From contig JADLSH010000158.1 in the NCBI GenBank assembly GCA_016169945.1, positions 779,001 through 843,000 on the forward strand: a DNA stretch of 64,000 bases. Direction: 5' to 3'. The notes beneath the pieces were generated by a model. It was not told where the DNA came from, ran no database searches, and saw only the letters and a program-made list of their open reading frames with translations. This document shows positions 40,891 through 56,236 of this stretch, piece by piece. Position 1 is the first letter of the stretch. Each line of letters begins with the position of its first letter. Source of the stretch: Trachythela sp. YZ-2020 (Eukaryota > Cnidaria > Anthozoa > Malacalcyonacea > Clavulariidae). Position numbers and translations under genes: made by a program.

Positions 40891-41239
40891 CCCGATAACT
40901 TCTTGCAAGACACTTATGAGGTAAGGACATAGTGCAGGTACACTTTTCCAATAATGCATTGGGAATTTAAGCAGTCAAGTATAGCAATTCCTCGGATTCT
41001 TCTTTGAACGTAAGAACATATTCAGTTTTGGAAGGATATTGGCGCTTCAGAGTTTATCGTTTACACTATTCAGGACGGGTATAAGATTCCTTTCCGGGAG
41101 ACACCGAAGCCAGCCGTTTTTGCGAATAACTCATCCTCCTTAAATAATTGGCAGTTTCTGTTTGATTCTATAACCCAATACACTGACAGAATTGTTCAGG
41201 TAGAAAAGCATGACTAAATAGTATGTAGCCCGCTTTCTG

Positions 41240-41742
41240 TAGCTTCACAACCGAGTGGTAAAAAGCGACTGATTCTGGATTTGAGATATGTGAACAATCA
41301 TGTTTATAAGCAAGTTACAAAATTTGAAGATTGGCGAACGGCCTTACAATTTTTTGATAAGGGCTCCTTTTTCACGAAATTTGATTTGAAATCTGGTTAT
41401 CATCATTTGGATATTTTCTCAGAGCATCAGCCCTACCTGGGTTTCAGTTGGGTGATGGATGGCAAGAAATCCAGTTATTTAATGTTTTCGGTATTGCCAT
41501 TTGGATTGACTTCAGCTCCATATATATTCACCAAATTGTTGCGGCCCATAGTAAAATATCGGCGATCCCAAGGGATTAGCAATGTAGTATATTTGGATGA
41601 TGGCTTTGAGGCCACGATAGCCCTTCAGAATTTAATTACTCATCCGAGGACATCTGCTCGAAAGTTGGCATCTGCCGTTGGGATGATCATTTCCATGGGG
41701 TCTGTTATAGGCAATTTAACTCGTATTATGAGTCGTCATTAA
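41240..41742 (+). pseudogene. DIRS-like reverse transcriptase
   Basis: Recognisable RT blocks: KKRLILDLRYVNNHVY, FTKFDLKSGYHHLDIF, LPFGLTSAPYIFTKLLRP, and the catalytic VVYLDDGF. These are characteristic of DIRS-group RTs. After YLDDGF the sequence jumps to LITHPRTSARKLASAVG, so the end is deleted. The open frame starts only at 41281, while the motif begins upstream across a stop at about 41218. Confidence 0.75.
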
Positions 41743-46684: not shown

Positions 46685-46815
46685 CTTTACTATTGCACAA
46701 TCTTTGATTTGTACAGCACAGGCGTAACACTACATAATACTACATATTATTTGCATCATTATAAGACATTCAGGTCACAGATGTGTGTCAGTGCATACAT
46801 TTTACAAGAGTCAAG

Positions 46816-47493
46816 ATGGAGGCAGACGCCCAAACATATGAAGAACTAAACCAACCACAATATGAAGCATATGGTTGTAAATTTATCAGTGAAGTAAACA
46901 TCTCGCTTGGAGCCAAAGTGCTTGATATGGGCTATGGTACTGGCAATCTCACTAAATATATCGCTGATATCGTTGGCTCTGATGGTCAGGCGGTCGGGAT
47001 CGATTCCGATGATGCGAGAATCAAAATTGTCACTGGTTTCCACAGGAAGGTGAGCCGTATTATGACGTCCATATAACCATGAATGCATTCCACTGGTTTC
47101 AAACGATTAGAAAAGATTTACATACAAAAAGCATACCAATCTTTAACACCTGAAGGGAAACTGGCCATTTTGTGTGGAGATAAAGAAAAGAGCGGTCGAG
47201 GAGATCAATTTGAACTTGTTGACATCTATCCTTTGACTCAACATGAATTTCGAAAGCTATCGCAAGAAGTAGGCTTATTCAACAATGTTGTGGTCAAACA
47301 AGTCGTTTACCCAGTACATTTTAAGTCGTATAAAATATATAAGCGTTCGGTGAAAGCATCGTCACATCATGATTTAGGCAAGTTAGATCCAGCCTTTGTA
47401 AAACAGGTTATGGCTGACCAGATTACTTTTCACGATGATGGCAGTGTTACATCCAAATCACCAAGCATTTGCATCACCGCAAGTAAAGAATAA
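46816..47493 (+). pseudogene. JHAMT-like SAM-dependent methyltransferase, copy 1
   Basis: Class I methyltransferase fold: motif I VLDMGYGTGNLT (Cys replaced by Tyr compared with copies 2 and 3), then GIDSDDARI (motif II), later LTPEGKLAILCGDKE (post motif III) and the end ITASKE. It would use S-adenosylmethionine; cnidarian relatives are annotated as juvenile hormone acid methyltransferase-like, substrate unknown. About 54 bases around the EDKYKEVS segment of copy 2 are missing. Three single-base deletions (near 47036, 47097 and 47107) sum to one codon, but a stop lies between the first two (ATA TAA, about 47073). No introns. A pseudogene unless recoded. Confidence 0.8.
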
Positions 47494-48082
47494 ACGGTTT
47501 TAAATATAGACGATAGTTGTAGACCAATATTGTATGTGGTGAATGTAAACTATAGCAAATAAATGTGAAGTTTACTAGTTATTAGTATGAAATAAAGCAT
47601 GGAATCTGTCAGAGTTGGTTCCTGAACTCTCATGCCCCGGTCAATCGAGAAGGGTATACACCGTAGGCTAGAACAAGAGTTGCATGAAAGGGCTATCACC
47701 TAAACTTTCTTTGACTCTCTTCAAAATTTGAACCAGCTCAAGCTTCAAAGTTGACGAGAGTACACGAGACCTGGCGATCAAATACGAGCGAGATTTGTAA
47801 TCTCATCTTTGTTTGATGACATGCATTATGTAAATTGATGTAAATTGTCATGAGTTATTAGATGTAATATGTCATTAAAATGCAAATGATAAATTCTATA
47901 CTAACCTACATAACACGTGAAATGCTTTAAGTATTCTTTGTTTGCACATGACGTCACTTCGTTTCATTGGGTTTCTAGTGGAGAAGAATGCTTCCAGTTT
48001 GACTCTACCAAATATCGCAGATTTTCTCCGAGTACTCTGGCTTTCCTCCTGTAGTCACACTGGATCAGTAAGGGATCGCCCC
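47494..48082. repeat. 3' flank of methyltransferase copy 1, duplicated at 54478-55388
   Basis: AAACGGTTTTAAATATAGACG, CTCATGCCCCGGTCAATCGAG, CACGTGAAATGCTTTAAGTA and GCAGATTTTCTCCGAGTACT occur in the same order after copy 2. This shows that the flank was duplicated along with the gene. TGACGTCA (47948) is present in both flanks. Confidence 0.85.
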
Positions 48083-48440
48083 AGTAGGTAACACCCCCCT
48101 CCCATCTGGGATCGGAAGTAATTAGTATTCAGGATATGTTTAGAGTGATGACGTCATAGGGTGTTCGTATTTTCCCGCCATATGACGTCAGCAACGTACA
48201 TCCATCGTAATTTTCCCGCCATATGACGTCATTTGCGTACGTACGGGATTAGAAGTAATTAGTATTCGTGTGAGGTCATTTGCGTGCGTACGCGTGCGTG
48301 CAGAGCGTAATAATCAGAGAGTTTTGTGTTTTTATTTTATTTAAATTACACACAACAATTTAAATGTTTCTTCTAATAAGAAAGTCGTTTTATAGTTTTG
48401 ACTTTATTGTTCGTTAGCCATGGTTTCTTTAACAAAGCCT
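48083..48440 (+). repeat. Left terminal inverted repeat of the Polinton-derived element
   Basis: Pairs with 52255-52597. Near the outer end it has three TGACGTCA palindromes; the inner part TTACACACAACAATTTAAAT and CCATGGTTTCTT also match. A 20-bp insertion (TTCTAATAAGAAAGTC) distinguishes the left copy. The 3' end of the 118-codon frame lies within the repeat. Confidence 0.85.
48149..48231. promoter_or_regulatory. Three CRE-like TGACGTCA palindromes in the TIR
   Basis: TGACGTCA at 48149-48156, 48183-48190 and 48224-48231, the last two each preceded by CCCGCCATA. The right TIR carries the same sites. TGACGTCA is the ATF/CREB binding palindrome, so they could serve as promoter elements; that is inference. 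Confidence 0.5.
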
Positions 48441-48760
48441 CGGACCATAGGCTCGTCTTCGTGCAGATTCACCCACTTCATACGACCTGTAGATTGATGC
48501 CTTATTTTGACAGGCCAATAATGTTCGTCGTTGATGCAGACACCAGGACGACTAGGATCAAAACTATTGCGCGATGACTTATACATCTCTATGATAGCAT
48601 ATCCTTCGGGAATGTTACGGACCTCCTGTGCTCCCAGCGTGTAATTTTGCCACTCGGGGATAGTTGCATCCGACCAGGTAATATAACGCTGACGTTTAGG
48701 TTGTTTTCTTCTAGACTTGGTTTCGATGCCAGAGACTGGGGTGGGTGTAGTACTCTTCAC
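48404..48760 (-). pseudogene. Polinton-derived element: 118-codon protein downstream of the ATPase
   Basis: Unrecognised basic-to-acidic protein with KSRRKQPKRQRYITWSD, IPEGYAIIEMYKSSRNSFD and HQSTGRMKWVNLHEDEP. It lacks an ATG; the frame is open upstream and begins one base off from the end of the ATPase frame (the ATPase stop overlaps at 48757-48759). It may be expressed by frameshift or splicing, or may have lost its start. Its C-terminal codons are in the TIR. Confidence 0.55.
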
Positions 48761-49413
48761 TTTAGTTTGGGTGGTGAAGAGATAAACATGGCAGTCGCCA
48801 AATAGGTCCCCAAGAACTTGCTATCCGCTGGTGTGTCAGGTTTGTTATCCACCAACAAGTATCCAAACGGTTTTTCGGTCTCTTTGTAATTGGCGTTCAT
48901 AAAGTGGATTCTATTCTTATCAAACATTCGTTCTCCAACAATTCCAATTTGTTTCCTGTCACTAGGACTTTGGAAGAGAGCAAGATATTGGGCATTTCGG
49001 CTGATATCTGTATTAAATTTCCCCCTAGGAAACATGTTCTGAAGCAAAAGGATAACACTAGCGTTTCTATGACGACCCTGAGTAAGTAATCGAGCTACCA
49101 TAGGACTGTCTGTTGCTTCGGCCATCAGATCATCCAGTATGATTATGTTGTTGTACTTGGTATTAATCTCACTCAGATCCTCCGACAGCTCTGGCAAACC
49201 TCTCTCAAATCGGATGCTTTTCCCAAGGGATTTTTTCAAATCGTCGTAACGATCTTGCCATTGATTGTAGCACCAAAGGATATGAATGTGTTTCTTTTCC
49301 TCATACACGATACGATTTTTTCCCAAAATTTGTTGGACAAAATACGTTTTTCCACTTTGGCTCGGACCCACGACCAATAGCGAAAATTTATGGCGGAAAA
49401 TTCCGGATAGGGC
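48757..49413 (-). pseudogene. A32-like packaging ATPase of the Polinton-derived element
   Basis: P-loop (Walker A) GPSQSGKT near the N-terminus, Walker B IIILDDLM about 80 residues on, then LLTQGRHRNASVILLLQNMF, a motif typical of FtsK/HerA-type ATPases of Polintons and related viruses, which pump DNA into capsids. The frame is about 218 codons and has no ATG before the P-loop; it is cut by a TAA at 49414. Either the start codon was lost or an upstream exon or frame supplies it (another frame, 49236-49490, overlaps). The core is intact in sequence. Broken start suggests an old, inactive copy. Confidence 0.75.
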
Positions 49414-49432
49414 TTAGTAATCAAAGATGCTG

Positions 49433-49753
49433 TTACTTTTGGTACGGTTTTGTTGGTTTTAGTATAGAACTTGTTTTCTTTCGAACACATCTCATTTCTT
49501 TTAGCATATGTGCCGGTCGTGTAGGTAGTAAACTTGAGTTGTGGTTATGCGGTGTTGAGAACCTCGCCCTTCCTAACCACTTCTTCCTTTCATCTCCGTA
49601 TAAGTTATGTACTTGACGCAAATGATCACTTATATATCGAAGACCAGGCTTGTTACAGAAAGGACAGTCTCTTTTGTGCTTGTAGCCTTGTAGGGCATGT
49701 TGACACTTTGAAAGTTCAACCATAAATGACCGAGAATAAAGTGTTTCAAACAT
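49433..49753 (-). CDS. Zinc-finger protein of the Polinton-derived element
   Basis: From ATG at 49753 (MFETLYSRSFMVELSKCQ) it encodes CPFCNKPGLRYISDHLRQVH, a C-x2-C-x12-H-x3-H finger, then WLGRARF and a basic C-terminus. Proteins with this CPxC...LSxHLRQVH finger accompany such ATPases in cnidarian genomes (recalled, not checked). The frame is open further upstream through a 12-bp minisatellite, but that part (PHIDPTSTS...) is a product of the repeat. It ends 20 bases before the ATPase frame, as in a compact gene cluster. Confidence 0.6.
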   Translation of the reverse strand: MFETLYSRSFMVELSKCQHALQGYKHKRDCPFCNKPGLRYISDHLRQVHNLYGDERKKWLGRARFSTPHNHNSSLLPTRPAHMLKEMRCVRKKTSSILKPTKPYQK

Positions 49754-49764
49754 TTTTGCGGCGA

Positions 49765-49862
49765 CATGTGAGGTCGATGTAGGGTCGATGTGAGGTCGAT
49801 GTAGGGTCGATGTGAGGTCGATGTGAGGTTGATGTGAGGTCGATGTTGGGTCGATGTGGGGC
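49765..49862. repeat. 12-bp minisatellite (GTCGATGTGAGG/GTCGATGTAGGG)
   Basis: About eight units alternate GAGGTCGATGT and AGGGTCGATGT. It lies between the divergent zinc-finger and acidic-protein genes, that is in the promoter interval of the element. Confidence 0.85.
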
Positions 49863-50055
49863 ACCGGTTCGAGTCCGGTTCGGTAGATGTAAACATTTTA
49901 TAAGATGTCATAATGATTATTTAATTTGTCAATATAAGAAAATTATGACTAAGCTATCATTAACAAGGCATTTACAGACAGTCAGTGGTAACGGAATGAG
50001 CTGCAGATTTTGAGGAAAACAATTTAAATGTCCACTACGCGAACAAGAAAGAAAC

Positions 50056-50341
50056 ATGTCTCAAACAGGCTCGGATAGCCAGGAAAGGGATTTCCAAGAC
50101 GATGTCTCAACAGCTTCAACGCATGGGTTCGATGACGACTGATAATGAGTCAGAAACTGAAGAAACAGAAGAAATGGATCCTTGGATGCCATTGATAGAA
50201 GAAGCAAAGCAAAGAAGTAATACAGCTTTTGAGGAAATGAAAGAGAGCCTTATAAACAGCGGTCTTGATGAGCAATCTGCTACCGACAAAGCTTACACCA
50301 ATATTCTGCCTGAACTCCAGAAGGAACTTGAAAATATTTAA
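50056..50341 (+). pseudogene. Acidic protein of the Polinton-derived element, N-terminal half
   Basis: ATG at 50056 opens MSQTGSDSQERDFQDDVSTA but reaches a stop at about 50140; the neighbouring frame (from 50102) continues with ETEETEEMDPWMPLIEEAKQ, LINSGLDEQSATDKAY and LPELQKELENI. The second half lies at 52022-52230 beyond a 1.68-kb insertion. The DPWxxLI...LPxLQKELENIY type protein is familiar from cnidarian predicted proteomes, function unknown. Confidence 0.6.
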
Positions 50342-50460
50342 TAGATAATTACTGAGGCCAACGGCATTCTTGAATATATTGCAGCCAGCTGAGGCCGAAG
50401 GCCGAAGCTGGCTGCAATATATTCAAGAATGCCGTTTGGCCGAAGTAATTATCTATTAGA
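50342..50460. repeat. 119-bp foldback palindrome
   Basis: AATAGATAATTACT and GGCATTCTTGAATATATTGC with CAGCCAGCT pair with AGCTGGCTG, GCAATATATTCAAGAATGCC and AGTAATTATCTATT around a GAGGCCGAAGGCCGA centre. It would extrude a long hairpin. Confidence 0.85.
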
Positions 50461-51073
50461 ATTACTGACGTTAGTCAAACGTATTGTTCTTTCTCTTTAC
50501 GATCGCAGCGATTTTAGGCATCGCCCCCAATTCAAAAGTAATTGTTTTAGGTAAGGTTCTAAGATTAGGGTACTGCTTGTTGGACTGAATCACAATGAGC
50601 TAGCGTGTTCTTTCAAATCCCACAAGCGCAAGCCAAGAAATTGCAGCATAAATACAACAGCTGAATATGCGCATGTTAGAGCAAACGCTTGCCGCGACAT
50701 GTCTTGCGCGGCGACTCCAGACGAAAGTTATGACGCAATCTTCATCAAAAACGGAAAAGCAACAGAACAGAGCAATGCAGAGATGCGCTAATTCTAAGTG
50801 CAGAATTAATTAAACAGAATAAGACACGAATAAAAACTTTTTAATGTGTTTTGCGCATGTGCCGATGTTCGATAAAATACCACAAGCGCAAGGTAGACTA
50901 TTGCTGTATAAATGCAACAGATTGAAATAAGGATTCAGTTCACCTTCAGGTGGCAAAACTTGAGGCACCCGATGATAGGCACTTCTTCCTGACGATAGGC
51001 ACTTCTTCCTGACGAACGTCTGGTAGTGGTTGAGGGGTCTTTAGCTTGCTCGAAGAGAGCACTGCCGCCTTAA

Positions 51074-51812
51074 GCCCGGCGCACACTAGTGCAAGTTGTA
51101 CGCACAGATGTCATTCGTGACCAATTACGTGCGACGAAAATCCTAGTGTGCGGGGAAAATATACAGGATTTTTGTCACTCGTGTCGTGAACAACAAATAT
51201 CAAACGTTGATATTTTCTATCATTCGTGACAAAAATTCCTCGCAGCAAAGAAGTGCGCATGCGTGTTATTTCCCAAAACAACATGGCGGATAGTGAACAA
51301 ACACTTGCAGCTAGCGACAGGAATTGCGGCGGGCATTTGCCTGACTATAGTTAAGTCAAATACTTATAAAATAAACCTTTCCCACCTCCAACCCTTAACC
51401 TAACCCTAACCAGAAATGTATGAAAAGGAATTTTGGGGTTAAAACAAGTCGGAAACAATTATTTGAAAGAAAAAATAATTTAAGTGAGAAAAAAGTTTTG
51501 GCCGGGATTGACCGGGCTTGAACAGCCGCTCTAAGAAACTGTAGCCAGCGCACGCCCTAAACCACTACGCCACCGACTAGCTCGCTGAATGCAATTGCAA
51601 TAAACCACTATATATAATGCTAAACATACATTCTTTGCTGCGAGGAATTTTTGTCACGAATGACAGAAAATATCAAACACGTTTGATATTTGTTGTTCAC
51701 GACACGAGTGACAAAAATCCTGTATATTTTCCCCGCACACTAGGATTTTCGTCGCACGTAATTGGTCACGAATGACATCTGTGCGTACAACTTGCACTAG
51801 TGTGCGCCGGGC
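51074..51812. mobile_element. TTAA-flanked MITE with about 177-bp TIRs (piggyBac-like)
   Basis: TTAA stands at both ends (51070-51073 and 51813-51816). The TIRs begin GCCCGGCGCACACTAGTGCA and extend to TTCTTTGCTGCGAGGAATTT. TTAA targets are diagnostic of piggyBac-type elements. No transposase. The interior includes a tRNA-like sequence. Confidence 0.8.
51510..51592 (-). repeat. tRNA-like (SINE-head) sequence inside the MITE
   Basis: On the minus strand GTGGCGTAGTGGTTTAGGGC resembles an A box region and GTTCAAGCCCGGTC a B box about 45 bases on. Stem pairing is imperfect, so a functional tRNA is unlikely. Confidence 0.4.
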
Positions 51813-51829
51813 TTAATGCGCCATGCTGG

Positions 51830-51962
51830 CAGCATTATTCTTAATAATGCTGTGAGCAGGCTGCATTATTTTTAATATTGCTGTCAGCAGGCTGCAATAT
51901 TTTTAATATTGCGGTGTGCAGGCTGCAATATTTTTAATATTGCTGTGTGCCAAGCGCACTCT
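51830..51962. repeat. 31-bp tandem repeat (CAGGCTGCAATATTTTTAAT...)
   Basis: Four units with 2-4 changes each; the core GCAATATTTTTAATATTGC is itself palindromic. Confidence 0.8.
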
Positions 51963-52021
51963 GCATTCGCTGGTATAACGCAGAGAGAGAACAATAGGTT
52001 ATTATGACCGTCAGTAATTAT

Positions 52022-52230
52022 TTACATGGAACGCCTTTTGTGGATGAAACAAGAAAGATCCAGTACATCAGAAAATAATGCAGACAAAGGATGTGTTTGT
52101 GGAAAACGATGACTTTGATTCAGAAGAAGCTTTAGAAGCTGCTATTGATAAGAGGGCATTTCTTATAAGAAGACTTTTAAAGGATTACGATTTTGATGAA
52201 GAGAATAATGAAGAAAGTGATAATGAATAG
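52022..52230 (+). pseudogene. Acidic protein of the Polinton-derived element, C-terminal half
   Basis: Resumes the frame lost at 50341 with MERLLWMKQ; one base shift later it reads VFVENDDFDSEEALEAAIDK and FLIRRLLKDYDFDEEN, ending in an acidic tail at 52230. Besides the insertion there is therefore a frameshift near 52056. It ends just outside the right TIR. Confidence 0.6.
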
Positions 52231-52254
52231 AAGTTAAACTCGGTCAAACGGTTT

Positions 52255-52597
52255 AATACGTTCCGGGCCTTTGTTCAAGAAACCATGGCTATCGAACAAT
52301 AAATCCAAAACTATAAAACATTTAAATTGTTGTGTGTAATTTTAAATAAAATCAAAACACAAAACTCTGATTATTACGCTCTGTACGCACGCGTACGTAC
52401 GCAAATGACCTCACACTAATACTAATTACTTCTAATCCCGTACGTACGCAAATGACGTCATATGGCGGGAAAATTACGATGGATGTATGTTACTGACGTC
52501 ATATGGCGGGAAAATACGAACACCCTATGACGTCATCACTCTAAACATATCCTGAATACTAATTACCTCCGATCCCAGATGGGGGTTGTTACCTACT
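52255..52597 (-). repeat. Right terminal inverted repeat of the Polinton-derived element
   Basis: Inverse of 48083-48440, ending ...GTTACCTACT at 52597. It differs by scattered substitutions, one ACC/AC indel near the tip and lack of the 20-bp insertion. The TIRs are similar but not identical, so the insertion is not very recent. Confidence 0.85.
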
Positions 52598-52822
52598 GGC
52601 CCCCTCACTGAAAAACAAGTTCGAACTCATAGAGTTACGCAGTATATACATATAGCTGTGTACATTGTAAATACTATAAAGTTATTTTAATTCTTGTTTA
52701 TTTTAATATATCTATGTCACTATGTGCCAACAGTTCTAATCAAACCATGCAGAGCTTGGTAACAATGTAATGACGTTATCGCATATCCGGAAACACTTAA
52801 GGGTGCTCTGGTTGACTAGTTG

Positions 52823-52830
52823 TATATAAA
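52823..52830 (+). promoter_or_regulatory. TATA box of methyltransferase copy 2
   Basis: TATATAAA in GACTAGTTGTATATAAATATTG, 100 bases before the ATG. Copy 3 has the identical context at 55533-55540, so the promoter was copied with the gene. Confidence 0.6.
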
Positions 52831-52929
52831 TATTGATTATTGTGTAATTATCGCTATACACAGAGCTGTACATGAATATCACACATTTTACTAGCCTGCG
52901 TGCCGTCTAAACATTTTACAAGAGTCAAG

Positions 52930-54477
52930 ATGGAAGCAGACGCCAAAGCGTATGACGAACTAAACCAACCACAATACGAAATTGGTTGTAAATTTATCAG
53001 TGAAGTAAACATCTCCCTAGGAGCCAACGTGCTTGATATGGGCTGTGGTACTGGCAATCTCACTAAATATATCGCTGATATCGTTGGCTCCGATGGTCAG
53101 ACGATTTGCTCCATGCAAATGTATGTAGATGAACTTATTACAAAGACTGAGGTGGACGGTTTCCAACTTAATGAGACAAAATGTAAAGAGCTACGTGTTA
53201 GTTTCTCGAAGTCTAATAACGTGTTTGAGCCGATTGTAATCAACGAAAAGAACGTCGAAATTGTCCCTTCTGCAAAACTGTTAGGTTTAACGATATCAAA
53301 CGACCTAAAGTGGAACACTCATATCGCGGAGATTTGTAAGAAAGTAGCATCGCGTTTGTACTTTCTTAGACAGCTTAAACGTGCTAAACTTCCAACCAAA
53401 GATCTTACTCTATTCTACATCACTTGCATTCGCCCTATAACAGAGTACGCGTGTGAAGTTTTCCATGGCTCATTACCTCAATATTTATCCGACGATCTAG
53501 AGAGTCTACAAAAGCGTGCCCTACGTATTATACACCCCGAACTGTCTTATAGCCAAGCTTTACGAACGGCGAACTTTGGAACACTATCCAGTAGACGACA
53601 AAGTTTAAACGATAAGTTATTTCAGGATATTATCGATGATAATTCACACAAACTGTATAAACTATTGCCTCCTAGAAACAATAGTACCATATGCTTACGT
53701 AATAGACGCACGTTTCAGCTTCCAAAATGTAAGACAAATAGATTGAAAAACAGTTTTATCCTATACAATTCCTATAGATACTCGTATTAAGAATGTAATC
53801 ATAATTTTATAAAATTTTAATGTAACATATAAATTTATACTTTTTAATGTAAAGGTTATTATAATTCAGCCTTTGTTGCTGTAAGTTATAACTTCAATAA
53901 ACTATCTATCTCTATCTATCTGGGAATCGATCCCGATGATGCGAGAATCAAAATTGCTGAAGACAAATATAAAGAAGTCAGTAATCTTCAGTTCCATGTT
54001 GGTAATAGTGTGACTGGATTTCCACAGGATAGCGATCCGTATTATGACGTCCATATAACCATGAATGCATTCCATTGGTTTCCAAACGATCAGAAAAAGA
54101 TTTACATACAGAAAGCGTACCAATCTATAAAACCTGGAGGAAAACTGGCCATTTTGTGTGCGGATAAAATAGAGAGCGATCGAGGAGATCAATTTGAACT
54201 TCCCGATGTATTTTTCTTTTCCCAAGATGAACTTCGAAATCTGTTTCAAGAAATTGGCTTATTCAGCAATGTTGTGGTCAAGCAAGTCGTTTATCAAGCA
54301 CATTTTAAGTCGAATGAAATCTTTAAGCTTTGGGTCAAAGCAACGACACATCATCATTTAGGCGAGTTTGATCCAGCCTTTGTGAAACAGGTTATGGCAG
54401 ACCTGATTACTTTTCACGATGATGGCAGTGTTACATACAAATTACCAAGTATTTGTATCACCGCAAGTAAAGAATAA
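52930..54477 (+). pseudogene. JHAMT-like methyltransferase, copy 2, split by a LINE
   Basis: N-terminal part 52930 to about 53103: FISEVNISLGANVLDMGCGT (motif I intact). About 815 bp of LINE follow (53104-53922). The gene resumes with IDPDDARIKIAEDKYKEVS, PYYDVHITMNAFHWFPND, IKPGGKLAILCADKIESD and FVKQVMADLITFHDDG, ending ITASKE at 54477. Without the insertion this is the least damaged copy, with no other clear break seen. Intronless, TATA-driven. As it stands it cannot give a full enzyme. The 296-codon frame from 52900 is a chance fusion of methyltransferase N-terminus and LINE. Confidence 0.85.
53104..53922 (+). mobile_element. 5'-truncated LINE inserted in methyltransferase copy 2
   Basis: Encodes the last part of a non-LTR RT protein: TKCKELRVSFSKSNN, VPSAKLLGLTISNDLKWNTH, FYITCIRPITEYACEVFHGS, LQKRALRIIHPELSY and a terminal FKSTFILYNS-like region, stop at 53790. 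A 3' UTR with AATAAA-like TTCAATAAAC and a (TATC)n tail at 53896-53921 follow. The protein end is uninterrupted, so the insertion is fairly young. Confidence 0.85.
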
Positions 54478-54571
54478 ACGGTTTTAAATATAGACGATAG
54501 TTGTAGACCAATATTGTATTGTAAACTATAGAAAATAAATGTGAAGTTTACTAGTTTATCAGTATACAAAT

Positions 54572-54728
54572 AATGAATGTTTATGCGTGCAATGGTAAAA
54601 ATATTTTCATTCGGTCAAAGATGGAATTTTCCCTTCCACGAGCGACAGCCCGGTGGAATGGGAAATTCCATCTTTCACCGAATGAAAATATTTTTTTCCA
54701 TTGTAAGAATGAAAACATTCATTATTTG
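54572..54728. repeat. Foldback element
   Basis: AATGAATGTTT, CAATGGTAAAAATATTTTCATTCGG and GATGGAATTT pair with their complements on the right side (AAATTCCATC, CCGAATGAAAATATTTTT, AAACATTCATT). Another hairpin, CCATTTTCACGATCGTGAAAATGG, lies at 54942-54966. Confidence 0.8.
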
Positions 54729-55387
54729 TTTTATATGACACCAAAATATATCAATGTTGTGAAAGATTTATTGGAATAAATACAAAAAAAAACAAATCAA
54801 ATACTCCATTGATATACCAATCAAATACCCCATCCCAAAAATGTTTTCATGAAGAATGAATACGATAATGGCATAACCGTGGATTTTTGTACCATACGAT
54901 TTGTTCCATTGCACGGCTGAGCGTGCAATATAATAGTTTTTTCCATTTTCACGATCGTGAAAATGGAACTTTTATTTCAACGTTACGTGATAATAATGAA
55001 CCAATTAAATTATGAGAATCTACTAAGGTGTTATATAATATGAAATAAAGCATGGACCAAGCGCGATTGGAATCTGTCAGAGTTGGTTCTTGAATCTTAA
55101 ACTCTCATGCCCCGGTCAATCGAGAAGTGTATACAAGAGTACACGAGAGCTGGCTATCAAATGCGAGCGAGATTTGTAATCTCATAAATTAAATTCTAAA
55201 TTCTTTACTAACCTACGTAACACGTGAAATGCTTTAAGTATTCTTTGTCTGCACATGACGTCAGTTCGTTTCATTGGGTTTCCAGGGGAGAAGAATGCTT
55301 CCAGTTTGACTCTACCAAACATCGCAGATTTTCTCCGAGTACTCTGGCTTTCCTCCTATAGTCACACTGGATCAGTAAGGGATGGCC

Positions 55388-55619
55388 CCCTCACTGAAAA
55401 ACAATTTCGAACTGATAGAGTTACGCAGTATACATATAGCTGTGTACATTGTATATAGTATAAACTGATCAAACCATAATGACGTTATCGCATATCCGGA
55501 AACGCTTAAGGGTGCTCTGGTTGACTAGTTGTATATAAATATTGTGTAATTATCGCTGTGCATGAATGTAAAACATTTTACTAGCCTGCGTGCAGTCCCA
55601 ACATTTTACAAGAGTCAAG
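55388..55619 (+). repeat. 5' flank of methyltransferase copy 3, with empty Polinton site
   Basis: Matches 52598-52929 (CCCTCACTGAAAAACAA, GATAGAGTTACGCAGTATA, TGCTCTGGTTGACTAGTTGT). At 55383-55388 GGCCCC stands uninterrupted between the sequences that in the other copy lie on either side of the Polinton-derived element. Confidence 0.85.
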
Positions 55620-56236
55620 ATGGAAACAGACGCCCAAGCGTATGAAGAACTAAACCAACCACAATACGAAGCTTGAAAGTGTTTGATATGGGCTGTGGTA
55701 CTGGCAATCTCACTATATATATCGCTGACTCTGATGGTCAGGCCGATTCCGATGATGCGAGAATCAAAATTGCTGAAGACAAATATAAAGAAGTCAGTAA
55801 TCTTCAGTTTCATGTTGATAATAGTGTGACTGGATTTCCACACGATAATGAGCCGTATTATGACGTCCATATAACCATGAATGCATTCCATTGGTCTCCA
55901 AACGACCAGAAAAAGATTTACATACAGAAAGCCTACCAATCTTTAAAATCTGGAGGAAAACTTGTCATTTTGTGTTGCGATAAACTTCGAGCAGATCAAT
56001 TTGAACTTGTCGGTCTATATCTCCTGTCCCAAGATGAATTTCGAAAGCTATTTCAAGATGTGGGCTTATTCAGCAATGTCGTGGTCAAGCAATTCGTTTA
56101 TCAAGCACATGATTTGAACGAATTAGATCAAACCATTTTGAAACAGTTATTGGCTGAAAAGTTCACGATGATGGCGGTGTTACATCAAAAATACCGTTTA
56201 TTTGTACCAGAGCCAGTAAAGAATAAATGGTCTTAA
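55620..56236 (+). pseudogene. JHAMT-like methyltransferase, copy 3
   Basis: Starts like the others (METDAQAYEELNQPQYEA), then a TGA at about 55674 because some 40 bases before motif I are deleted. The rest stays open: VFDMGCGTGNLT, SDDARIKIAEDKYKEVS, YDVHITMNAFHWSPND, GGKLVILCCDKL, LGLFSNVVV-like. A second deletion and frame change near 56110-56170 remove the usual ITASKE end. TATA box at 55533-55540. Inactive. Confidence 0.8.

What the first reader, a model, noticed from the sequence alone, without database searches (positions are those of the whole stretch)
48083..52597. Compact 4.5-kb Polinton-derived element with a mapped target site
Seen: TIRs over 300 bp starting AG, 6-bp target duplication (CGCCCC/GGCCCC), an uninterrupted paralogous site at 55383, and genes for an A32-like ATPase, a CPFC...HLRQVH zinc-finger protein, an unknown 118-codon frame and a divergent acidic protein. 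Known: Polintons are usually 15-20 kb and carry polymerase B, integrase, protease and capsid genes. Inference: either an internal deletion derivative that keeps only the packaging cluster, or a small satellite-like virus or transposon class dependent on a full Polinton.
Basis: partly seen in the sequence, partly recalled or inferred. Interest (0 to 1): 0.88.

Follow-up and report, generated by a model that had tools for sequence, protein, structure and literature searches.

The report
Two-gene Polinton-like mobile element family
The window holds one damaged copy of a numerous family of small mobile DNA elements that carry only two conserved genes, one of them a relative of the motors that pump DNA into virus shells, which suggests they may travel as satellites of larger virus-like transposons.

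Summary
The element is real: 48083-52597, long inverted repeats, 6-bp target duplication (one mismatch), empty paralogous site. Its gene list was misread: zinc finger, ATPase and '118-codon' frame are one gene, and the acidic frames are two ends of a second gene split by a ~1.7-kb nested insertion. Without it the copy is ~2.83 kb. The host genome (578 Mb) gives 150 scored hits for each gene, of 1404 and 1334 candidates; 72 of 150 second-gene hits lie beside a scored ATPase hit, all 72 divergent. Copies span ~1.9-4.5 kb, with exact 6-bp duplications in 5 of 6 cleanly ended ones. In unbroken copies the ATPase domain shows purifying selection (median dN/dS 0.13); its model resembles A32/B204-type packaging ATPases. 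Polinton-type polymerase genes are common, but 0 of 150 scored ATPase copies lie within 20 kb of 76 of them. So this is an element family, not a one-off deletion. Inferred mechanism: a satellite mobilised by a Maverick-type integrase, bringing its own packaging motor.

The parts
48077..48082 (.). left copy of the 6-bp target duplication (CGCCCC; one mismatch to the right copy)
   Evidence: empty paralogous site reads GGCCCC at 55384-55389
48083..48444 (+). left terminal inverted repeat, starts AGTAGGTAACA
48118..48128 (+). conserved terminal motif GTAATTAGTAT (a second one at 48255-48265)
   Evidence: present in the terminal repeats of 12 of 12 bounded elements, 0 outside those elements in the stretches held; AGTAATTAGTATKC occurs 1096 times in the genome against 57 for the reversed control
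48407..48820 (-).
   Evidence: P0121 residues 293-428, 79% identity, frame -1
48808..49398 (-). A32/FtsK-HerA-like P-loop ATPase domain of gene 1 (Walker A GPSQSGKT; Walker B IIILDD)
   Evidence: P0121 100-296, 89% identity, frame -2; Pfam Pox_A32 2.3e-09
49395..49684 (-). N-terminal zinc-finger and linker part of gene 1 (CPFC...HLRQVH), in two frames
   Evidence: frames -1 and -3
49755..49875 (.). 11-bp minisatellite between the two divergent genes
   Evidence: family D1
49996..50338 (+). 5' part of gene 2: C2H2 zinc finger (broken here), acidic stretch, start of the helical domain; frame broken
   Evidence: P0239, P0195, P0209 align; 295 relatives at E <= 1, the 120 listed all below 1e-20
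50339..52019 (.). nested insertion, about 1681 bp, splitting gene 2
   Evidence: relatives' protein runs on from 50338 to 52020
51063..51823 (.). 761-bp inverted-repeat element flanked by TTAA, inside the nested insertion
52020..52227 (+). 3' part of gene 2
   Evidence: frames +3 and +1; 84% to P0209
52262..52597 (-). right terminal inverted repeat
52598..52603 (.). right copy of the target duplication (GGCCCC)
55191..55438 (.). uninterrupted paralogous site (target at 55384-55389)
   Evidence: families D6 94%, D17 93%

Best explanation
A family of compact (about 2.8-3.6 kb in bounded two-gene copies) Maverick/Polinton-like elements that encode two conserved, divergently transcribed genes: (1) a zinc finger joined to an A32/B204-type packaging ATPase and a C-terminal domain without a known family, and (2) a C2H2 zinc finger joined to an acidic, helical protein. 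SHOWN: borders, 6-bp target duplications, two-gene content, high copy number, purifying selection on the ATPase in unbroken copies. SUPPORTED BY MODEL AND PFAM: packaging-ATPase-like fold. INFERRED: the elements are satellites. A Maverick/Polinton-type integrase acting in trans inserts them (AGTAG[GC]...CTACT ends and 6-bp duplications), the helper's protein-primed polymerase copies them from their inverted repeats, and their own ATPase, steered by its zinc finger to the repeats (candidate site GTAATTAGTATTC), loads them into the helper's capsids in place of helper DNA.
Confidence: 0.5

Rival explanations
1. A longer autonomous element with the same TIRs exists (10-16 kb), and the two-gene elements are its relatives; the helper is not the resident PolB Polintons.
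For: Among the first 100 of 1096 motif places, convergent pairs at 5.9, 10.2, 10.9, 11.0, 15.3 and 15.6 kb, against 8 same-strand and 0 divergent pairs between 5 and 16 kb.
Against: None of these intervals contains one of the listed PolB rows (by inspection) or one of the 150 scored ATPase hits (by inspection); a 1.2-kb look inside one of them (L063) shows no frame longer than 65 codons. Nested insertions or neighbouring solo ends would give the same spacings.
Confidence: 0.2
2. The two proteins are the element's own transposition machinery: the ATPase is a transposition regulator and one of the unrecognised domains is a new recombinase, so the element is autonomous.
For: Conserved C-terminal domain (WSD..W..Y...YWPVKI.H...G..KW) without any Pfam match; both genes often kept together; many copies.
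Against: 6-bp duplication with Maverick-like ends points to a known integrase type; Pfam and fold point to packaging motors; no conserved DDE/D triad is evident to me by eye in the alignments, which is not a test.
Confidence: 0.13
3. Internal deletion derivative of a full Polinton, with the ATPase kept only by hitch-hiking.
For: Polinton-like ends and an A32-like ATPase, a gene that Polintons also carry (PMC4028283, passages).
Against: At least 72 scored loci with the same two genes; ATPase dN/dS 0.13 in unbroken copies; 0 of 150 ATPase copies within 20 kb of 76 PolB positions; related proteins in two sea anemone genera (one of them, from Exaiptasia, complete) and a stony coral.
Confidence: 0.07
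4. A minimal virus in its own right: the 194-aa acidic helical protein or the C-terminal domain forms a shell and the ATPase fills it.
For: A packaging-type ATPase as one of only two genes; recombination of modules between copies.
Against: Gene 2 models as helices at pLDDT 67.5 with no significant viral structural match (low confidence, so weak evidence); no integrase or polymerase gene in the bounded elements.
Confidence: 0.05

Closest known systems
Polintons / Mavericks (polintoviruses)
   Same: Long TIRs with AGT-type ends, 6-bp target duplications, an A32/FtsK-HerA-type packaging ATPase (PMC8097293, PMC4028283: passages seen)
   Different: About 2.8 kb against 15-20 kb; no polymerase B, integrase, protease or capsid gene; ATPase joined to a zinc finger and an unrecognised C-terminal domain; the TIR family was not found beside PolB
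Tlr elements of Tetrahymena
   Same: ATPase-bearing, Polinton-related large transposons (PMC4028283, passages)
   Different: Tlr carry integrase, helicase and capsid genes; this element has none of them
Virophages and Polinton-like viruses
   Same: Packaging ATPase of a similar fold (Sputnik V3 among the structural hits at rank 18, E 0.011); satellite lifestyle as a model
   Different: Virophages encode their own capsid and replication proteins (PMC3671162, passages)
Phage-inducible chromosomal islands and other phage satellites
   Same: Works-like analogy: a small integrated element that carries a packaging-specificity protein and uses a helper's capsid (listing and start of abstracts seen; the terminase detail is recalled)
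   Different: Bacterial; redirects a helper terminase instead of bringing a whole ATPase (recalled); no homology claimed
MITE-like non-autonomous DNA transposons
   Same: Short TIR elements moved in trans; gene-free members of this family look like that (L040, L041, L042)
   Different: Full members keep two genes, the ATPase under selection
IS3EU / GingerRoot
   Same: Eukaryotic DNA transposons with 6-bp target duplications (PMC10045372, passages)
   Different: Their ends are TA..TA (occasionally TG..CA for GingerRoot), not AGTAG...CTACT; they are related to IS3/IS481 by transposase

Membership tests
Polinton/Maverick | 6-bp target site duplication | tested here: met
   exact in 5 of 6 elements that pass the end filter, one mismatch in the sixth; L049 exact; window copy one mismatch of 6 with an empty paralogous site; no clear duplication in L041, L042, L043, L050, whose ends are unclear
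Polinton/Maverick | long TIRs with AG/AGT-type termini | tested here: met
   AGTAG[GC]T ends, TIRs about 160-450 bp or more; compared with (AGT)2//(ACT)2 in PMC8097293
Polinton/Maverick | protein-primed polymerase B | tested here: not met
   12 bounded elements (2.1-4.5 kb) hold no frame that could be one; 0 of 150 ATPase copies within 20 kb of 76 PolB positions
Polinton/Maverick | retroviral-type integrase | tested here: not met
   no such match in the five frames of the window copy scanned against Pfam; the longest unmatched frame in 12 bounded elements is 218 codons of minisatellite; those frames were not scanned against Pfam and no whole-genome integrase search was run
Polinton/Maverick | double jelly-roll major capsid, penton and cysteine protease | tested here: not met
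   no frame for them in the bounded elements; no profile search for these families was made
Polinton/Maverick | FtsK/HerA (A32-like) packaging ATPase | tested here: met
   Pfam PF04665 above cut-off in 7 of 7; supported by moderate fold matches: STIV2 B204 top of pdb_via, A32-like ATPases in BFVD
Polinton/Maverick | ATPase groups with Polinton ATPases in a tree | not tested
   no reference Polinton ATPases could be brought in; PF04665 genome search unanswered
Non-autonomous satellite transposon | shares ends with an autonomous partner that encodes the transposase | tested here: inconclusive
   end motif not near 11 PolB positions; six long convergent motif pairs unresolved
Capsid-sharing satellite | DNA found in helper particles | not testable with these tools
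   needs purified particles

The most novel reading that the evidence does not exclude
A eukaryotic, transposon-borne counterpart of phage satellites: a two-gene element that competes for the capsids of Maverick viruses by bringing its own zinc-finger-guided DNA-packaging motor, present in sea anemones and corals and moving until recently.
Probability: 0.35. Interest if true: 0.92.

Novelty: new variant of a known kind. Interest (0 to 1): 0.78.

Why it matters
Maverick/Polinton virions have been predicted from genes and not observed (PMC4028283, PMC8097293; passages and start of abstracts seen). An abundant element that keeps, under selection, a packaging-type motor and little else is hard to explain unless packaging happens, so it makes the existence of particles directly testable. 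It would also be the smallest Polinton-type element with its own conserved genes that I met, and a eukaryotic parallel to phage satellites. My paper searches did not turn up a description; Repbase and subscription journals were not searchable.

Tried and rejected
Scans of IMG/VR with the window ATPase, an ATPase alignment and a gene-2 alignment, of prokaryote genomes and of phage records gave no relatives. PDB sequence search with the ATPase profile gave nothing below E 0.2. PHROGs gave one significant hit, a terminase large-subunit family (5.4e-07); NCBIfam gave nothing useful. tRNA scan: none. The model of gene 2 (pLDDT 67.5) gave no BFVD match with E <= 0.001. A zinc-finger/TIR co-variation idea did not hold for L039/L055. 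The pattern AGTAGSTTAWCCC... genome search was unanswered and not repeated. A stretch beside one PolB (L062) showed neither end motif nor a border. TIR loci with one clear repeat in the fetched stretch (L045, L046, L048, L051-L053) were left out of the bounded-element tables, as was L047, whose ends are not clean. In one search L041 counts as gene-free; one search shows a 25-residue gene-1 remnant in it.

Limits: the 150 ATPase, 150 gene-2, 40 TIR and 76 PolB candidates are only the scored part of 1404, 1334, 392 and 783 candidates. TIR-found loci are biased to the window's subfamily. Pairwise dN/dS values are not independent, recombination is present, and only unbroken frames entered.
Full report
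OBSERVATION. The inverted repeats (48083-48444 and 52262-52597) match at 88% over their whole length and 94.8% over the outer 288 columns. The flanking hexamers are CGCCCC and GGCCCC, and a paralogous copy of the flanks, 93-94% identical, reads straight through a single GGCCCC at 55384-55389. This is an insertion with a 6-bp duplication, one base of which has since changed.

GENES. The gene list had to be redone. tblastn of one of them (P0121) covers 49684-48407 in four pieces and three frames. The acidic frame at 50000-50341 has 295 relatives at E <= 1 (the 120 listed all below 1e-20; proteins over 197 aa could not be returned). The relatives aligned (P0209, P0239, P0195, P0276) continue without a break into the second acidic frame at 52020-52227. 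So the copy has two genes, both broken, and the 50339-52019 stretch is a later insertion, itself containing a 761-bp TTAA-flanked inverted-repeat element. By subtraction the element is about 2.83 kb.

COPIES IN THE SAME GENOME. The window lies in a 578-Mb assembly. The ATPase domain finds 150 scored matches of 1404 candidates, 71-100% identical, 121 of 150 without a stop in the domain (my count). Gene 2 finds 150 scored of 1334 candidates. Of the 150 gene-2 hits, 72 have a scored ATPase hit within 4 kb, against 0.3 expected, and all 72 are divergently arranged. Of the seven other top ATPase loci (L002-L008), six show gene 2 in the stretch held. Of 15 loci found by the TIR, 4 carry both genes, 5 gene 2 only, 1 the ATPase only, and 5 neither; six of these 15 hold only one clear repeat. 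In 12 bounded elements (2.1-4.5 kb), 101 frames of 80 codons or more were compared: 68 match neither gene, and those shared between elements overlap the two genes in another frame or are minisatellite-like repeats (HRPHIDLTST, REPRGNPEGT and the like), by position and by eye. Ends: six elements pass a filter for clean AGTAG[GC]T termini and matching repeats; all have a 6-bp duplication, exact in five and with one mismatch in the sixth, while 4, 5, 7 and 8 bp do not fit. L049, outside the filter, is exact too; L041, L042, L043 and L050 have unclear ends and no clear duplication. TIR identity is 97-99% in several copies and 87-88% in others; the high values speak for recent movement if both repeats were identical at insertion and not evened out later.

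A CONSERVED END MOTIF. GTAATTAGTAT lies in the terminal repeats of 12 of 12 bounded elements (near both ends in 11 of 12), at the same distance from both ends or within 6 bases of it, and 0 times outside them in the stretches held around these elements. L005, L054 and L055, found by their ATPase and with otherwise different repeats, have it too. AGTAATTAGTATKC occurs 1096 times in the genome against 57 for the reversed control. TGACGTCA and TTTSSCGC (which I recall as CREB/ATF- and E2F-type sites) are found in the terminal 400 bp of 10 of 12 elements, not in L054 and L055; most of the ten were fetched through the window's TIR and are not independent.

SELECTION AND MOSAICISM. In the ATPase domain median dN/dS is 0.128 (73 pairs with dS > 0.1, range 0.074-0.396, 13 copies); gene 2 gives 0.35 (38 pairs, 11 copies), the C-terminal domain 0.585 (33 pairs, 13 copies), the zinc finger 0.375 (9 pairs). 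Only copies with an unbroken frame over the part compared entered (13 of 31 loci for the ATPase). Copies are mosaics: L003 and L059 share no detectable DNA similarity in the zinc-finger part, 83% identity in the ATPase and 98.5% in the C-terminal part.

HELPER QUESTION. The genome is rich in PF03175 polymerase B, the protein-primed type: 76 scored candidates of 783, most listed ones in frames of about 1200-1400 aa. I take these as Polinton genes; the elements around them were not read, apart from 3.8 kb beside one. None of the 150 ATPase copies or 40 TIRs lies within 20 kb of the 76 PolB positions I took from that table (about 0.8 ATPase copies expected by chance, my arithmetic; 2 and 2 lie within 40 kb), and the end motif is at least 146 kb from each of 11 PolB positions on the contigs covered by the first 100 places. 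The small elements are therefore not fragments of those Polintons and do not share their ends as far as tested. The best pointer to a Maverick-type integrase is the combination of 6-bp duplications and AGTAG[GC]...CTACT ends; vertebrate Mavericks are described with (AGT)2//(ACT)2 ends and 6-bp duplications (PMC8097293, passages), whereas IS3EU and GingerRoot, also with 6-bp duplications, end in TA..TA or occasionally TG..CA (PMC10045372, passages). Six convergent motif pairs 5.9-15.6 kb apart, against none divergent, keep open a longer partner with the same ends.

HOSTS. Named relatives come from Actinostola and Exaiptasia (sea anemones) and Porites lobata (stony coral); Actinostola and Porites are Hexacorallia by the taxonomy.

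MECHANISM. Committed reading: a satellite of a Maverick-like virus-transposon, integrated by the helper's integrase, copied by its polymerase, and packaged by its own zinc-finger-guided motor. Shown: anatomy, copies, selection on unbroken ATPase copies. Supported by Pfam and model: the ATPase's kind. Inferred: helper, replication, packaging, recognition of the motif. It works like a phage satellite by analogy only. It should not be filed as a Polinton: polymerase, integrase, protease and capsid genes are absent.

NOVELTY. Seven paper searches (one search returned nothing at all) and passages of PMC11071296, PMC5294986, PMC4642659, PMC6431247, PMC3671162, PMC4028283, PMC10045372 and PMC8097293 gave no description of such an element. 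Repbase could not be searched, so a repeat-library entry may exist. I rate it a new variant of a known kind.

Noticed in passing
G000 C35:923431, 926335, 929252: Three gene-2 copies on the same strand about 2.9 kb apart, as if elements stood head to tail in a tandem array.
   Followed up: no
G000 C3:99952-105806, C16:267567-282914, C17:93338-103489, C23:79516-95165, C38:1584198-1595193, C44:846997-857923: Convergent end-motif pairs further apart than in the bounded elements; possible longer partner elements.
   Followed up: partly
G000 C231:226188-234186 (L002, L010, L011, L015): A copy about 99% identical to the window element in the ATPase and left TIR, with another TIR 4 kb away; probably a duplication of the region.
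   Followed up: no
L003, L006, L059 and others: Zinc-finger, ATPase and C-terminal modules of gene 1 have been exchanged between copies.
   Followed up: partly
window 46783-56236: Tandem array of methyltransferase-like gene copies (Pfam Methyltransf_11/25), one with a long frame that matches ALKBH8_N; the element sits between two array units.
   Followed up: no
window 41218-41742: Reverse-transcriptase frame (RVT_1), DIRS-like by eye.
   Followed up: no
window 49755-49890: 11-bp minisatellite followed by GGTTCGAGTCC, which resembles a Pol III B box (recalled); perhaps a SINE remnant.
   Followed up: no
L040, L041, L042, L044: Gene-free or gene-2-only elements are filled with minisatellite-like arrays that read as REPRGNPEGT- or HRSSTEAPQKL-type repeats.
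   Followed up: no
proteins P0064, P0068, P0077, P0095, P0099: A second ATPase subfamily, 62-64% identical to the window ATPase, with a lysine-rich tail instead of the C-terminal domain, from unnamed sources.
   Followed up: no
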